Source of the DNA: a virus | Virus record (IMG/VR): IMGVR_UViG_3300031566_000061 | Location: 1 to 50,086 of that record | Strand: one strand, 5' to 3' | Length of the DNA stretch: 50,086 nucleotides | Part shown: in pieces, positions 21,501-38,521 of the stretch | Position numbering within the stretch: position 1 is the stretch's first letter | Layout: every line of letters starts with the position of its first letter | Program-made: the position numbers and the translations under genes | Notes under the pieces: generated by a model | What the model was told of the DNA's origin: nothing | Database searches by the model: none | The model's input: the letters and a program-made list of their open reading frames with translations, nothing else

Positions 21501-21818
21501 TCATTCTGAATTTAATTCATACTCATCATCCAGGGCATCCCAGCATTCAGGACAAATCAAAGGCCCAGCGTACTCATCCGATAAATAGCCAGCACCGTAG
21601 TTATCTTTTTCAATAAGAACCAACTGGTCATCACTCCCCCCACACTCCTCACACTCATACCATCTTTCATCTTTGCAGACTTCACAAAGCCAAAGGCCAG
21701 CGTTGGTATGTTTTTCCCATTTCACTTTCACTTGATAGTTGTAAATCCAGACCATATCATACTTACTTAGACCGCCTGTTTTTCCGCACGTTGCACACTT
21801 TTGCTTACCCATGGTCAC
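21501..21818 (-). CDS. Small multi-zinc-ribbon protein
   Basis: The 105-residue product has four CxxC pairs (CATCG, CEVC, CEECGG, CPEC) spaced as two zinc ribbons. It resembles the N-terminal half of the next gene downstream (LWLCEVCKDERWYECEECGG against VLCYDCVFTAYVECETCG). The pair may have arisen by duplication. The ATG overlaps the stop of the replication gene. It could bind nucleic acid or protein. Confidence 0.6.
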   Translation of the reverse strand: MTMGKQKCATCGKTGGLSKYDMVWIYNYQVKVKWEKHTNAGLWLCEVCKDERWYECEECGGSDDQLVLIEKDNYGAGYLSDEYAGPLICPECWDALDDEYELNSE

Positions 21819-22984
21819 TCCTTTTGATCTTCATTTTCAAAAAGATTACTACAATCCCAAACCCCATTGACAAAGGTAAAAACTTTTTCACAATCCTTGC
21901 ATATCACTGATGTCCACTCTACTTCTGCGTAGGGATCATTATTGATGGCCATTTCAAGGCGTTCAATTTTACCGCCACACTTGCACTTTTCCGGTGGAGG
22001 TTGCCTTGCCTTTTTTTTTAGTGCTCTCGGCGTGTATCTTGAGGATTGCTTGATAAGACCATTCTTACCGAGAATGTTATTACTAAGATCAGATATCGTT
22101 TTTACATTCTCTTTCCAAAAGTCCATATCCTCAATAGCCTGAAGGCATTGATCAAGTACTTTCCAACCCTTGGTCTCTATTATTCTCAAAACCCTCTTTT
22201 CACATGAATCATCCCAGTCTTGGGGAAAAAGATTTTTAACCCGATTTATCATCTCCAAATTATTAGAAAAAGAAGCGGGCGGCTTTCTCTTCTCTTTCAT
22301 TGTATTTAATTCTCTTCTCTTCTCTTCTGCCGCCAGACTTCCGCATTGCTTGCGGACCTCATCCGGCGGACTGCCGGCGGACTGCCGGACCTCATCCGGC
22401 GGACTGCCGGCGGACTGCCGGACCTCATCCGGCAGACTGCCGGCGGACTGCCGGACCTCATCCGGCGGACTGCCGGCGGACTGCCGGACCTCATCCGGCG
22501 GACTGCCGGCGGACTGCCGGACCTCATCCGGCAGACTGCCGGCGGACTGCCGGACCTCATCCGGCGGACTGCCGGCGGACTGCCGGACCTCATCCGGCGG
22601 ACTGCCGGCGGACTGCCGGACCTCATCCGGCAGACTGACGGGAATTGGTGGTATTTCAGAGGCAGGCTCTCGGTCGTATCGCATATTCTGTTGATTTTTA
22701 CGAAACCCTGGGAATTCCAAGTATTTTTCACCATTCACCGTATACCATTCTACCAATCCATTTTCAGCCCAGTCCTTGATGATTTCTTCAAATTCATCAA
22801 CAGTTGGTTCCAGCGTCCTTGGGAACAATATATTTCTCAAATAGGTTGGGTCCCCCTCAATCCTTCCATCTCTGTCAAGGTGTACTACGGCATATATGAA
22901 GGCCAAACGTCCTATATGCGTTTTAAGGTTTAATACTTTTTTGTCCTTAACTATTTTTCTCAATATCAACCTTCCGCTTGCCAT
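21815..22984 (-). CDS. Replication initiator / replisome organiser candidate with internal repeats
   Basis: The 389-residue protein begins with a winged-helix-like domain (VLNLKTHIGRLAFIYAVVHL ... EEIIKDWAENGLVEWY) seen in phage replication initiators of the DnaD-like group. Residues about 115-213 are nine copies of an 11-residue unit PDEVRQSAGS(P/L), encoded by 33-bp repeats. The rest contains a helical region and a zinc-binding CKCGG...CKDC motif. In lambda O and related proteins the origin lies as iterons inside the initiator gene, so this array is a candidate origin. The start follows GGAGGAACC. Confidence 0.65.
   Translation of the reverse strand: MASGRLILRKIVKDKKVLNLKTHIGRLAFIYAVVHLDRDGRIEGDPTYLRNILFPRTLEPTVDEFEEIIKDWAENGLVEWYTVNGEKYLEFPGFRKNQQNMRYDREPASEIPPIPVSLPDEVRQSAGSPPDEVRQSAGSPPDEVRQSAGSLPDEVRQSAGSPPDEVRQSAGSPPDEVRQSAGSLPDEVRQSAGSPPDEVRQSAGSPPDEVRKQCGSLAAEEKRRELNTMKEKRKPPASFSNNLEMINRVKNLFPQDWDDSCEKRVLRIIETKGWKVLDQCLQAIEDMDFWKENVKTISDLSNNILGKNGLIKQSSRYTPRALKKKARQPPPEKCKCGGKIERLEMAINNDPYAEVEWTSVICKDCEKVFTFVNGVWDCSNLFENEDQKE
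22351..22640. repeat. Nine 33-bp tandem repeats (candidate replication origin iterons)
   Basis: The word gacctcat recurs every 33 bp at 22355, 22388, 22421, 22454, 22487, 22520, 22553, 22586 and 22619. Each unit contains the perfect inverted repeat CCGGC-GGACT-GCCGG. Every third unit has CAG for CGG in its first half, so the array is also three copies of 99 bp. GC content is far above the surroundings, and all six frames lack stops here. Confidence 0.9.
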
Positions 22985-34243: not shown

Positions 34244-34272
34244 TTGACTATTTGATAACGCTGTGTTATACT
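34244..34272 (+). promoter_or_regulatory. Early promoter with palindrome
   Basis: TTGACT (34244-34249) and TATACT (34267-34272) are 17 bases apart and follow a long T-rich tract. The spacer and -10 form ATAAC-gctgt-GTTAT (34255-34269), a variant of the TGTAACA palindrome. It drives the genes between 34306 and 37381. Confidence 0.8.
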
Positions 34273-34305: not shown

Positions 34306-34896
34306 ATGAAAAGAAAATTGATGAGACTAAGAATTGAAGATACAAACAGAGGCCAACGTCCGGCCACAAGACGAGAGGCCCTCGAGGTCTCAGGGCTGAC
34401 TTATCGGGAAATCCGAAAAGTACTGTATCCGTACGGAACGGATGAATCTGTTTTTGATATTTTCCACACAGGAGACGCCGAAGTTGCTTTCTCAATTTCC
34501 CAAGGCGGATACAACTTCCGCCTTGTCGCGGAAAAGGTTTTTCCTGAAAAACCTGAATCAAAAATAAGGCTCAAAGAAACCAAATTCTCTGAGGAGGCAT
34601 TGATGTCCCCTATCGAACGAGAGACCCGGTTGAAAATCAACTCCAAATTTGGGCTTGATCTTCAACAAAATTATATCACTTCGTGTGGTATGGCAAAAAT
34701 ACTGCATATTGTAGTTGGCTACGAACGGTCTTTTTCCTCGAAAGAGGAGATAATTGAAACGGTCATGGAATGGCTGGGACAGAACGCTTTTTTAGATCAC
34801 GACGATTACTACATATTTGTAGTAGACGGCGTGGCGCATACGATAGGAGGCAGTGGGCTAAGGCGCCTCCAGGAAGGTAAATTCAAGACTGAATAG
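34306..34896 (+). CDS. Hypothetical protein, first gene of the tRNA-like-leader block
   Basis: From ATG 34306 (GGAG upstream) the product is 196 residues. It has a basic N-terminus and an HTH-like segment (ATRREALEVSGLTYREIRKV). The centre and C-terminus (YEMILMSPIERET-like region LMSPIERETRLKINSKF and DDYYIFVVDGVAHTIGG) predict mixed alpha/beta. No family is recognised. The gene is the only one in this block not preceded by a tRNA-like element and has its own promoter. Confidence 0.55.
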   Translation: MKRKLMRLRIEDTNRGQRPATRREALEVSGLTYREIRKVLYPYGTDESVFDIFHTGDAEVAFSISQGGYNFRLVAEKVFPEKPESKIRLKETKFSEEALMSPIERETRLKINSKFGLDLQQNYITSCGMAKILHIVVGYERSFSSKEEIIETVMEWLGQNAFLDHDDYYIFVVDGVAHTIGGSGLRRLQEGKFKTE

Positions 34897-34902
34897 ACCA
34901 GC

Positions 34903-34946
34903 CCCCGGTCCAGGTAGGTTAAGCCGGTTCAATTCCGGCACCGGGG
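34903..34946 (+). ncRNA. tRNA-like minihelix, copy 1 (complete)
   Basis: CCCCGGT (34903-34909) pairs perfectly with ACCGGGG (34940-34946) as a 7-bp acceptor-like stem. The 13-base linker CCAGGTAGGTTAA resembles a tRNA D-loop with its GG pair. Then GCCGG-TTCAATT-CCGGC (34923-34939) is a perfect T-arm with the consensus T-loop. No D-stem, anticodon arm or 3' CCA is present (next bases TATA). The stacked 12 bp (7+5) is the canonical tRNA acceptor/T length. Confidence 0.75.
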
Positions 34947-34950
34947 TATA

Positions 34951-34997
34951 CCCGCTTTCGCGGGAAATTTATTACAGCCCAAAAAGGGCTAAAGGAG
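34951..34997 (+). promoter_or_regulatory. Leader hairpin pair ahead of ribosome site, copy 1
   Basis: Hairpin 1 is CCCGC-TTTC-GCGGG (34951-34964). Hairpin 2 is AGCCC-AAAAA-GGGCT (34976-34990) and ends directly at AAAGGAG (34991-34997), the site for the gene at 35006. A hairpin touching the Shine-Dalgarno may tune or protect translation. Hairpin 1 of copy 2 has a different sequence but the same 5-bp/4-base form. Confidence 0.7.
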
Positions 34998-35005
34998 TTT
35001 GCAAA

Positions 35006-35734
35006 ATGGAAGCTTATAGACGACTCAGATTCGCAAAGTGTTCTCTCGATCATAAGGAACGGGTAACAGATTTTTCCAAATGGAATGGTCTGGGTGCAGC
35101 CATCATTGGTGATATGAACGGGAAAGGGTGGCACGAGGGATTGATTAGCGATAACAAACTGATCCCCGGAGATTATTTTCATTATGATGGGGGTGAGGGA
35201 AAACATTGTTATAACCCGCAGACAGAAAAATGTGGGTTTGATTCCGTAAGACTTCTTACGGATGTTAAATATTTTGGTGATAATCCAGATATAACAATGG
35301 ATGCTTGGGTCAATTTAACCCCTCATCCGATTATGTTACATCGTGATAAGAAAGTGACTCGGTGGGATGGCGCTGCATATGATGCGGCTGCCAGACTGAA
35401 AGAATCATATGGGGAACCGGACAAAAACGGAGTACGGAATATCCAATATACCGAAGTACTCAATTTGCCGAATCCAGCATCAAGAATTATGTTTATCGTA
35501 AGCCTTCCCCTATTGCTTGGGATGAAAGCTGCGGGGATAAATCGGCCAGATTGCATTGCCCCAGATACCGGAGATGGAGCTGTAAGAGAAAAAGAAGGAA
35601 AGTTTTGCGGGAGAATCATAGGAACCCGTGGTTTCATTCGGTTGAAAAATGATCAGTTGCAGTCAAGGACAGAGGAGCTGGAAAAAGAAATTGAACATGC
35701 TTATTTTGTTCATCCAGACCTTCGATCTATGTAA
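35006..35734 (+). CDS. Phage protein with NLTPH-type domain
   Basis: The 242-residue product has an N-terminal region of unknown type and, from about residue 105, the pattern VNLTPHPIMLHRDKKVTRW ... RIMFIVSLPLLLGMK ... RIIGTRGFIRLKN. This is a domain widespread in phages but without known function. Eight bases separate AGGAG and ATG, behind the hairpin leader. The C-terminal tail (LQSRTEELEKEIEHAY) is a short coiled coil. Confidence 0.65.
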   Translation: MEAYRRLRFAKCSLDHKERVTDFSKWNGLGAAIIGDMNGKGWHEGLISDNKLIPGDYFHYDGGEGKHCYNPQTEKCGFDSVRLLTDVKYFGDNPDITMDAWVNLTPHPIMLHRDKKVTRWDGAAYDAAARLKESYGEPDKNGVRNIQYTEVLNLPNPASRIMFIVSLPLLLGMKAAGINRPDCIAPDTGDGAVREKEGKFCGRIIGTRGFIRLKNDQLQSRTEELEKEIEHAYFVHPDLRSM

Positions 35735-35776
35735 TTCGTATTGGTACTCCACCGCGGAAAAAGTGTAATCGAGTAT

Positions 35777-35838
35777 CCCCGGCCCAGGTAGGTTACCCCG
35801 GTATCATTCCGGCACCGGGGTATACCAACCACGGTTGG
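35777..35838 (+). ncRNA. tRNA-like minihelix, copy 2 with covarying hairpin
   Basis: CCCCGGC (35777-35783) pairs with ACCGGGG (35814-35820) over six of seven positions. The linker CCAGGTAGGTTAC and stem CCCGG/CCGGC (four of five pairs) follow copy 1, but the T-loop reads TATCATT. The next hairpin is CCAAC-CACG-GTTGG (35825-35838) where copy 1 has CCCGC-TTTC-GCGGG. The changes keep pairing, so structure appears selected. Confidence 0.7.
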
Positions 35839-35873: not shown

Positions 35874-36203
35874 ATGAAAAGAACAAACCAGTCTTTTGTG
35901 ACACAAGATTACCATGGAAATTATATTACATGTACTGATCCAACACATACCGGTTCTCGTAAAGCGCACGAAAAAATGCTCCTTGCATGGGCAAGGGAAT
36001 ATTTTAAGATTCCGATTACACGCATAGATATCCTATATGGGAAACTATGCGATGATATCTCCAAATTATGGCTACAGAGGCCGGGAGATGGGTGGTTTAC
36101 GGATAAAATTGGGGAGTGGAGAACTCCCTTTTGTGATATTCGTATCGAAATATCACATGACGATACGAGAATTATCTTTCTTTTACCGAAACGGTCCAGG
36201 TAG
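35874..36203 (+). CDS. Hypothetical protein ending inside a tRNA-like element
   Basis: The 109-residue product (TNQSFVTQDYHGNYITCTDP...) is mixed in composition with an aromatic centre. Its last codons CGG TCC AGG TAG lie inside the third tRNA-like element, so the 3' end was probably formed when the element inserted or was copied. Ribosome site AAGGAG precedes. The function is unknown. Confidence 0.55.
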   Translation: MKRTNQSFVTQDYHGNYITCTDPTHTGSRKAHEKMLLAWAREYFKIPITRIDILYGKLCDDISKLWLQRPGDGWFTDKIGEWRTPFCDIRIEISHDDTRIIFLLPKRSR

Positions 36204-36264
36204 GTTACGCCGGTATACCCGCTTTCGCGGGAAAATTAACGCAGCCCAAAAAGGGCTAAAGGAG
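36193..36264 (+). ncRNA. tRNA-like element, copy 3 (T-arm deleted), plus leader hairpins
   Basis: GGTCCAGGTAGGTTA is conserved, then GCCGG joins directly to tatacccgc. Compared with copy 1 it lacks 19 bases: T-loop, 3' T-stem strand and 3' acceptor strand. Both leader hairpins are kept: CCCGC-TTTC-GCGGG (36218-36231) and AGCCC-AAAAA-GGGCT (36243-36257) before AAAGGAG (36258-36264). It appears to be a deletion derivative. Confidence 0.65.
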
Positions 36265-36270
36265 AATAAT

Positions 36271-36831
36271 ATGAAGGTATTGCCGTCAGAAAAAGAGAAA
36301 GCCATCAAAGAGGCTATCAATGAATTTGATACTAATTGTTCCTTCACGATATGCGAACCATGTGACTGTGGTTCGCATATTCAACATAACAATGGTGGAA
36401 ACTACCATTGTTATATTTCCCTTGCAAGGGAAAAAGATAGATTTTTTGTGAAATATGAAACAACGTCGGAGTTAGAGCCGGAGGCAGAATGGGAAGAAAT
36501 ATTCAACCGAGAACAAGCCATTAAGATAATTGAAGAAAACGCGGATTGGCTTCCACAGCCGCATGAAGTGGGTACTAGAAAAATACTCATTAATGCGCAG
36601 TATGGGGGCTTTTCATTGCCCCGAAATATTTTAAGAAAATTCGGTTACACCGACTCTCATCTCGTACAACGGGATGATGAGAATTTAATCAAATATATTG
36701 AAGAGAATGAAATTAAAACCAATGTGACATGTAGTCTAAAAATAGTTCAAATCCCATCAAACATCGATTGGAAAATAGAACAAAATGATGGGCTGGAATG
36801 GGTTGCTGAAAAACATAGAATATGGGAATGA
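36271..36831 (+). CDS. Protein with phage GGF(S/G)L domain
   Basis: The 186-residue product has a Cys-rich N-terminal part (TICEPCDCGSHIQHNNG). From about residue 104 it has the phage domain KILINAQYGGFSLPRNILRK ... LIKYIEENEIKT ... LKIVQIPSNIDWKIEQNDG followed by LEWVAEKHRIW. That domain is common in phages and has no known role. A 36-residue fragment of the same family is encoded at 39114. Confidence 0.65.
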   Translation: MKVLPSEKEKAIKEAINEFDTNCSFTICEPCDCGSHIQHNNGGNYHCYISLAREKDRFFVKYETTSELEPEAEWEEIFNREQAIKIIEENADWLPQPHEVGTRKILINAQYGGFSLPRNILRKFGYTDSHLVQRDDENLIKYIEENEIKTNVTCSLKIVQIPSNIDWKIEQNDGLEWVAEKHRIWE

Positions 36832-36865: not shown

Positions 36866-37381
36866 ATGACTAAGAAAATAGAAGATTTCTATAGAACTTA
36901 CACCGTTACTGACGCTAACGGCAATCAGATACCATTAGAGAAAGTGAATATGTGGAGTGAAGCGTATCATTTGTGGGGGGACGGGCCAAGAACAATTACA
37001 GCCCATGATTATATCATGGGTGAAAAAACAAGGAGTACCGATGAGATGGCCTATGCCATCGAAAATCGGTCAAATGACTATTTCACCGTTTTGAAAAACG
37101 ATGAAATAGTCATATGTAAATTGAGCGATAAAGACAAGCGGTTCCATTATTGCTACGAAATCAAATTAGGGGGAAAGAGCGTTCATTCCAGCCTAATCCC
37201 AGGTCTGAGAGAGCGAATTGAAGGGCGTGAAACCTTTGAATTGATTGCCTGGCATTTTGATCAAACCTGGGTAGGGGATCAACCGGTCCATATCCAGAAG
37301 AGAACCCAGGTACCCCAGGGTGTACCTGGGTATGGTCCTTTGCTCGATTATGAGAAAAAGACGGGGTTGCAGGCAAGTTAA
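36866..37381 (+). CDS. Hypothetical protein
   Basis: The 171-residue product (MTKKIEDFYRTYTVTDANGN...) is polar, with an alpha/beta centre (YFTVLKNDEIVICKLSD, CYEIKLGGKSVHSSLIPG) and a Gly/Pro-rich end. The stretch before it (ccagccccaggtctaagg) resembles the start of the tRNA-like leaders but lacks the arms. Ribosome site GGAGG. No family is recognised. Confidence 0.5.
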   Translation: MTKKIEDFYRTYTVTDANGNQIPLEKVNMWSEAYHLWGDGPRTITAHDYIMGEKTRSTDEMAYAIENRSNDYFTVLKNDEIVICKLSDKDKRFHYCYEIKLGGKSVHSSLIPGLRERIEGRETFELIAWHFDQTWVGDQPVHIQKRTQVPQGVPGYGPLLDYEKKTGLQAS

Positions 37382-37394
37382 TAGACCAGCCAGC

Positions 37395-37473
37395 CCCCGG
37401 TCCAGGTAGGTTACACCGGTTCAATTCTGGCACATCCGTACAGGTACTCCCCGGTTCGACTCCGGGGACGGGT
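37395..37473 (+). ncRNA. Two tRNA-like minihelices in tandem, copy 4
   Basis: The first half (CCCCGGT, linker CCAGGTAGGTTAC, stem ACCGG with loop TTCAATT and CTGGC) is degenerate: its 3' acceptor strand is lost. The second is ATCCGT (37434-37439) paired with ACGGGT (37468-37473), short linker ACAGGTACT and CCCCGG-TTCGACT-CCGGGG (37449-37467). That is again 12 stacked base pairs and a perfect T-loop consensus. It ends the plus-strand block. Confidence 0.65.
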
Positions 37474-38492: not shown

Positions 38493-38521
38493 TTGACAAT
38501 TGTGTAACAGCGTGTTACAGT
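38493..38521 (+). promoter_or_regulatory. Early promoter with perfect TGTAACA palindrome
   Basis: TTGACA (38493-38498) and TACAGT (38516-38521) are 17 bases apart after a T-rich tract. Between and over them lies TGTAACA-gcg-TGTTACA, the same core as at 18424 with a different centre. It reads into the genes from 38558. Confidence 0.8.

What the first reader, a model, noticed from the sequence alone, without database searches (positions are those of the whole stretch)
34903..34946. Minimal tRNA-like elements without anticodon arm between phage genes
Copy 1 has a perfect 7-bp acceptor-like stem, a 13-base D-loop-like linker and a perfect T-arm with consensus T-loop, in 44 bases. Three related loci follow (35777, 36193, 37395). 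Acceptor plus T-arm of 12 stacked bp is the known minimal substrate of bacterial RNase P, and T/D-loop contacts are typical of tRNA mimics such as the tmRNA tRNA-like domain and YrlA RNA. Between co-transcribed genes such elements could guide mRNA cutting or shield the 5' end of each downstream message. I know of no phage family described with this layout.
Basis: partly seen in the sequence, partly recalled or inferred. Interest (0 to 1): 0.85.

Follow-up and report, generated by a model that had tools for sequence, protein, structure and literature searches.

The report
Dispersed intergenic RNA-hairpin repeats in phage
Four related GC-rich repeats sit between and after the genes of one early operon of an uncultured phage; one of them looks exactly like a miniature tRNA without an anticodon arm, but the others do not keep that shape, so the repeats are more likely a gene-spacer module of this phage than a family of tRNA mimics.

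Summary
Shuffled windows give such an element about 0.0013 times per 50 kb. Four loci share CCAGGTAGGTTANNCCGGT (chance expectation 0), all on the + strand in one five-gene operon. The claim that all four are tRNA-like fails. Copy 2 has a broken T-loop and is predicted to fold as one long hairpin. Copy 3 has lost the 3' T-arm strand and the 3' acceptor strand. In copy 4 the first unit lacks a 3' acceptor, and a second T-arm unit has a weak acceptor. Changes in the acceptor and T-stem break pairs; none compensates. The only compensatory changes lie in a separate downstream hairpin. Sequence features favoured by RNase P (G+1, U-1, 3' RCCA) are absent from copy 1. No homologue was found in IMG/VR, GTDB genomes, phage or plasmid records. 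Best reading: a phage-specific, mosaic intercistronic repeat that gives genes a structured spacer and, in two copies, a hairpin next to the Shine-Dalgarno site, reshuffled by recombination. RNase P or RNase Z cutting at copy 1 remains possible but untested. Phage RNase P substrates (M3 RNA, C4 RNA) are already known.

The parts
34244..34272 (+). sigma-70-like promoter TTGACT-17-TATACT in front of the operon
   Evidence: consensus scan, 10 of 12 positions; not tested
34306..34896 (+). gene A (196 aa, unknown)
   Evidence: ORF; no Pfam or PHROG family above noise
34903..34946 (+). copy 1: perfect 44-base acceptor + linker + T-arm element
   Evidence: sequence; strict scan and shuffles; pair probabilities
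34951..34964 (+). hairpin 'gamma' of copy 1, CCCGC-TTTC-GCGGG
   Evidence: pair probability 0.97-1.0; compensatory relative to copy 2
34976..34997 (+). hairpin 'delta' AGCCC-AAAAA-GGGCT followed by AAAGGAG (Shine-Dalgarno) of gene B
   Evidence: direct repeat with copy 3, 92% over 53 nt; pair probability 0.9-1.0
35006..35734 (+). gene B (242 aa, matches phrog_30542 and phrog_21731, unknown function)
35777..35820 (+). copy 2: same repeat, T-loop broken, stems with one mismatch each
35779..35838 (+). long hairpin that copy 2 is predicted to form instead of the tRNA-like fold
   Evidence: -34.7 against -14.8 kcal/mol for the tRNA-like stems
35874..36203 (+). gene C (109 aa, unknown); its stop codon TAG lies inside copy 3
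   Evidence: ORF, no family
36192..36214 (+). copy 3: 5' half of the repeat only; 19-base gap in place of the T-arm 3' side and acceptor 3' strand
   Evidence: alignment
36218..36264 (+). hairpins gamma (36218-36231) and delta (36243-36257) of copy 3 with Shine-Dalgarno of gene D
36271..36831 (+). gene D (186 aa; C-terminal 55-85 aa has relatives in other phages)
   Evidence: phrog_16527
36866..37381 (+). gene E (171 aa, unknown), last gene of the operon
   Evidence: ORF; no family
37395..37431 (+). copy 4a: 5' half and T-arm (one G-U, one mismatch), no 3' acceptor strand
   Evidence: 93% identical to copy 1 over 44 nt
37434..37473 (+). copy 4b: second T-arm unit ATCCGT...CCCCGG-TTCGACT-CCGGGG-ACGGGT
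   Evidence: relaxed scan; T-stem p 0.96-1.0, acceptor p 0.03-0.39 in 161 nt or more of context and 0 in 101 nt, where an outer stem 37389-37396/37470-37477 is favoured

Best explanation
The four loci are copies of a phage-specific, mosaic intercistronic repeat in one early operon (A-B-C-D-E). At the RNA level each copy forms GC-rich hairpins between a stop codon and the next start, or after the last gene. In copies 1 and 3 it ends in a hairpin directly followed by a strong Shine-Dalgarno sequence. I infer that these structures isolate the cistrons from each other: the 5' part shields the 3' end of the upstream message from exonucleases, and the small gamma and delta hairpins keep the ribosome-binding site open and separate from upstream RNA. 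I also infer that the copies spread and were rearranged by recombination between repeats; the phage encodes RecE-like and RecT-like proteins. Shown: the repeats, their place and strand, mosaic relations between copies, predicted hairpins. Inferred: the effect on mRNA and the role of recombination. The perfect tRNA-like shape belongs to copy 1 alone.
For: Four copies on one strand, between or after co-oriented genes of one operon. Mosaic relations: copy 1 shares its 5' 44 nt with copy 4 (93%) and its 3' 53 nt with copy 3 (92%). The gamma hairpin is kept by two double changes (CCCGC/GCGGG against CCAAC/GTTGG). Gamma and delta have pair probabilities of 0.86-1.0 in copies 1 and 3. No promoter-like site lies inside the elements. 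RecE-like and RecT-like genes are present. Relatives of gene D in two other viral records sit in an accessory cluster where several genes are preceded by a dispersed repeated leader (L126), so repeated gene leaders in such clusters recur.
Against: There are no homologous loci to test conservation, no transcript data, and copy 2 lacks delta. Copy 4 follows the last gene, so it can only act on a 3' end. The gamma covariation rests on two distinct sequences. In its full context copy 2 is predicted to merge gamma into a longer hairpin. Two independent consensus T-arms within 2.6 kb (0.057 expected per 50 kb) are not explained by a generic hairpin role.
Confidence: 0.45

Rival explanations
1. One reading: the elements are minimal tRNA mimics cut by host RNase P (or RNase Z) to punctuate the polycistronic phage mRNA.
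For: Copy 1 has a 12-bp coaxial acceptor/T-arm with consensus T-loop and a GG-bearing linker, stable in context. Model hairpins of acceptor stem, T-stem and T-loop are cut by E. coli RNase P RNA (PMC11143913). RNase P cuts the hisCD mRNA and phage M3 RNA (PMC10731613). Unit 4b repeats the architecture with a different sequence.
Against: Copies 2 and 3 do not form it. Copy 1 has C+1-G72 and C-1 and is followed by TATACC, not RCCA. No compensatory change in the acceptor or T-stem. No homologues.
Confidence: 0.15
2. The elements are decayed tRNA-gene fragments (anticodon arm lost, or 3' ends left by attachment-site or satellite traffic) without present function.
For: T-arm consensus over-represented. 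The 4b T-arm plus 3' strand matches annotated phage tRNA-Leu genes over 23 nt (E about 1). A lone 44-base anticodon-less element lies next to a tRNA-Met in another viral contig (L088:2621-2664) and its 3' half matches tRNA-Ser genes, which shows that such remnants arise.
Against: ARAGORN finds no tRNA, Rfam's tRNA model does not match even at E up to 10, and no integrase was found among the proteins scanned. The 5' acceptor strands are pyrimidine-rich, unlike most tRNAs, and no CCA follows. The copies are homologous to each other, not to several tRNAs.
Confidence: 0.17
3. The repeats are mainly DNA-level recombination boundaries (gene-cassette joints) used by RecE/RecT-type annealing to swap accessory genes; RNA structure is secondary.
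For: Mosaic copies, RecE-like and RecT-like genes, genes A-E unrelated to each other and mostly without family, stop codon of gene C inside copy 3, no clear element between D and E.
Against: No related genome with a swapped gene was found, so no exchange is seen. Integron attC core motifs (GTTRRRY) fit only one copy, judged by eye.
Confidence: 0.18

Closest known systems
Start-Associated Sequences and Extended SAS of Cluster K mycobacteriophages (PMC3203893)
   Same: dispersed, mostly co-oriented repeats just upstream of many start codons in one phage group; about half carry an imperfect 17-bp inverted repeat; function unknown
   Different: sequence differs (GGGATAGGAGCCC); SAS lie at start sites, are many per genome and conserved across phages; here 4 copies in one genome, one of them after the last gene
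Bacteriophage phi80 M3 RNA and P1/P7 C4 RNA (RNase P substrates; PMC11143913, PMC10731613)
   Same: phage RNAs cut by host RNase P; copy 1 has a 12-bp stem with T-arm like the pre-tRNA-type substrates
   Different: cutting is shown for those, not here; copy 1 lies between mRNA cistrons and lacks the favoured -1, +1 and RCCA residues
hisCD intercistronic hairpin cut by RNase P (PMC10731613)
   Same: hairpin in a polycistronic message
   Different: single site, experimentally studied; no consensus T-arm repeat family
Repeated promoter leaders of gene clusters in viral contigs L126/L127
   Same: dispersed repeat in front of several small genes, including a relative of gene D
   Different: those carry a TTGACA-TATACT promoter; the window's elements carry none
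isrB RNA of Salmonella phages (Rfam RF01386)
   Same: weak full-length alignment to 34897-34970, 22.7 bits
   Different: below the gathering score of 35, E 0.49; isrB's first hairpin is missing here; in phage SPN3UB it is encoded opposite to the flanking genes

Membership tests
Minimal RNase P substrate (acceptor + T-arm) | about 12 bp of stacked acceptor and T-stem closed by a T-loop | tested here: met
   copy 1 only: 7 + 5 bp, TTCAATT loop, stable in context
Minimal RNase P substrate (acceptor + T-arm) | same architecture in the other copies | tested here: not met
   copies 2, 3 and 4a lack it; 4b only partly
Minimal RNase P substrate (acceptor + T-arm) | favoured residues U-1, G+1, 3' RCCA | tested here: not met
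   copy 1 has C-1, C+1, 3' TATACC. They are favoured residues, not absolute requirements: RCCA is not encoded in about a third of B. subtilis tRNA precursors (PMC10731613)
Minimal RNase P substrate (acceptor + T-arm) | cleavage by RNase P | not testable with these tools
   needs in vitro assay
tRNA-like RNA family under selection | compensatory changes in acceptor and T-stem | tested here: not met
   among 3 copies: 0 pairs with double change in these stems, 6 pairs that vary only by breaking, 1 G-U; no homologues for a larger test
tRNA gene | recognised by tRNA finders or Rfam tRNA model | tested here: not met
   ARAGORN 0; no Rfam tRNA match
isrB (RF01386) | score at or above gathering threshold 35 | tested here: not met
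   22.7 bits
Phage dispersed start-associated repeats (SAS-like) | repeated, co-oriented, immediately upstream of start codons | tested here: inconclusive
   met for copies 1-3 with Shine-Dalgarno in the repeat of copies 1 and 3; copy 4 is after the last gene
Integron attC | paired GTTRRRY/RYYYAAC core sites in every copy | tested here: not met
   read by eye from the sequence: only copy 1 has GTTAAGC; copies 2-4 do not fit

The most novel reading that the evidence does not exclude
The phage carries armless mini-tRNA modules (copies 1 and 4b) in its mRNA that are cut by host RNase P and/or RNase Z, a bacterial-virus version of tRNA punctuation of polycistronic transcripts, with the other copies being decayed ones.
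Probability: 0.1. Interest if true: 0.75.

Novelty: new member of a known kind. Interest (0 to 1): 0.3.

Why it matters
If the module only insulates cistrons, it is one more phage-specific intercistronic repeat of a kind seen before (for example SAS). If copy 1 is really processed, it would show that phages can place anticodon-less tRNA mimics inside operons to recruit tRNA-processing enzymes to mRNA, which a single in vitro assay can decide.

Tried and rejected
Pattern scans for the conserved core and for linker-plus-T-arm in IMG/VR: the one core hit lies inside a phage gene, and the 119 looser stretches look like ordinary tRNA genes or chance, none with this layout. Core in GTDB genome contigs: 9 hits, all in long open frames on one strand or the other, none followed by a T-arm. 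blastn against phages and plasmids: no covering match. Relatives by protein: terminase finds only a near-identical 10.8-kb fragment (L125) without the elements; DnaB finds distant phages without the elements; gene B none. isrB considered and rejected. tRNA gene, integron attC and sigma-70 promoter elements rejected. A full-length degenerate tRNA-Leu reading of copy 4 was considered and dropped: overlapping stems, no ARAGORN or Rfam match. I did not build a covariance model because there are no homologues beyond the diverged in-window copies; it would have been circular.

Full report
WHAT WAS CHECKED. The window is a 50,086-base IMG/VR virus record. It encodes a tailed phage with terminase, portal, major head protein and tape-measure matches, RecE-like and RecT-like recombination proteins and a DnaB-like helicase, plus a DNA methyltransferase beside the operon. 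The reported element lies in a co-oriented five-gene operon (A 34306-34896, B 35006-35734, C 35874-36203, D 36271-36831, E 36866-37381) behind a consensus promoter at 34244-34272.

THE OBSERVATION. Copy 1 is exactly as described: CCCCGGT, 13-base linker CCAGGTAGGTTAA, GCCGG-TTCAATT-CCGGC, ACCGGGG (34903-34946). A scanner requiring a consensus T-loop, 5-bp T-stem and 7-bp acceptor finds it as the only hit in the window. Over 1,500 Markov shuffles the mean was 0.0013 per 50 kb, and no shuffle gave this exact geometry. The motif was noticed first and tested afterwards, so this is not a clean probability. The shape survives in 161-701 nt of context with T-stem pair probabilities of 0.98-0.99 and acceptor pairs of 0.60-1.0. 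The four-copy repeat itself is certain: GGTCCAGGTAGGTTANNCCGGT matches four times, chance mean 0.00.

THE OTHER COPIES DO NOT KEEP THE SHAPE. Copy 2 has TATCATT in the T-loop and a mismatch in each stem. In context its best fold is a single long hairpin over 35779-35838 at -34.7 kcal/mol, against -14.8 for the tRNA-like stems alone. Copy 3 has a 19-base gap that removes the T-arm's 3' side and the acceptor's 3' strand, and the stop codon of gene C lies inside it. Copy 4a has lost the acceptor 3' strand. A distinct unit 4b follows, ATCCGT-ACAGGTACT-CCCCGG(TTCGACT)CCGGGG-ACGGGT. Its T-stem is firm (0.96-1.0). Its acceptor is weak (0.03-0.39 in 161 nt or more of context, 0 in 101 nt), and in the shortest context an 8-bp outer stem 37389-37396/37470-37477 is favoured. 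Counting pairs over copies 1, 2 and 4a, the acceptor and T-stem have no compensatory change: six pairs vary by breaking and one by G-U. The small downstream gamma hairpin has two compensatory pairs out of five. That count rests on three sequences, and two for gamma, so it is a pointer and not proof.

SIGNAL THAT REMAINS FOR tRNA-LIKENESS. Consensus T-arms with 5 bp are expected 0.057 times per window and two independent ones occur, both inside these elements. I therefore do not dismiss the resemblance as pure chance. It fits either tRNA ancestry or mimicry. Anticodon-less 44-base remnants do arise elsewhere: L088:2621-2664 (GGACGGG|AAGCACAGCGGTC|GTGAG(TTCGAAT)CTCAC|CCCGTCC followed by GCCA) lies beside a tRNA-Met in another viral contig, and its 3' half matches phage tRNA-Ser genes.

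SEARCH FOR RELATIVES. None was found: not in IMG/VR by four patterns, not in GTDB genomes (the hits are not followed by a T-arm), not in phage or plasmid records, and not in the whole records of DnaB and gene-D relatives. The only near-identical record (L125) is a 10.8-kb fragment without the elements. Rfam gives only a sub-threshold isrB match (22.7 bits, threshold 35), which I reject after comparing it with phage SPN3UB.

MECHANISM. The best-supported reading is an intercistronic repeat that acts in the mRNA as a structured spacer. Each copy forms GC-rich hairpins between a stop codon and the next start, or after the last gene. In copies 1 and 3 the repeat ends in AGCCC-AAAAA-GGGCT-AAAGGAG, a hairpin beside a strong Shine-Dalgarno sequence. 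Copy 1 shares its first 44 bases with copy 4 and its last 53 with copy 3, so the copies are mosaic, as recombination between repeats would make them; the phage has RecE-like and RecT-like proteins. The protective and insulating effect and the recombination step are inferred. An independent parallel: relatives of gene D in L126/L127 sit in a cluster where several genes are preceded by a repeated leader carrying TTGACA-16-TATACT and a Shine-Dalgarno site. The window's elements contain no promoter-like site.

RNase P. Acceptor/T-arm hairpins are accepted model substrates, and phage M3 and C4 RNAs and the hisCD mRNA are known RNase P substrates (PMC11143913, PMC10731613), so the idea is biochemically sound for copy 1. 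Residues that favour cutting are absent: -1 is C, +1 is C paired with G72, and the 3' flank is TATACC instead of RCCA. RNase Z, which from general knowledge does not need CCA, is as plausible as RNase P. I give processing of copy 1 about 10-15%.

VERDICT. A real, phage-specific repeat family with one striking member; the family-wide tRNA-like claim is not supported. It counts as a new member of a known kind (phage dispersed intercistronic repeats such as SAS), with a testable long shot at copy 1.

Noticed in passing
window, promoters at 34244-34272 and 38493-38521: The two consensus promoters each hold a similar imperfect palindrome (ATAACGCTGTGTTAT and GTAACAGCGTGTTAC), which look like operators of one phage repressor controlling two early transcripts.
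   Followed up: no
window 22385-22630: Eight matches at an exact 33-base spacing (minus strand) inside the gene at 21815-22984, an internal repeat coding for 11-residue units.
   Followed up: no
L126:4000-9000: A viral contig with nine copies of a 71-base promoter-plus-Shine-Dalgarno leader in front of small genes, and many 69-base coding repeats (23-residue units).
   Followed up: partly
L088:2621-2664: A perfect 44-base anticodon-less tRNA-like element with encoded CCA next to a tRNA-Met and upstream of a holin-like gene in another phage contig.
   Followed up: partly
window 36580-36828: The C-terminal 55-85 residues of gene D recur in unrelated phages as a small domain ending in WVAEKHRxW; one record (L127/G003) has two copies.
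   Followed up: partly
window 35734-35750: The B-C spacer starts with ATTCGTATTGGTACTCC, similar to ATCCGTACAGGTACTCC of copy 4b (82% over 17 nt), perhaps a relic of a 4b-type unit before copy 2.
   Followed up: no
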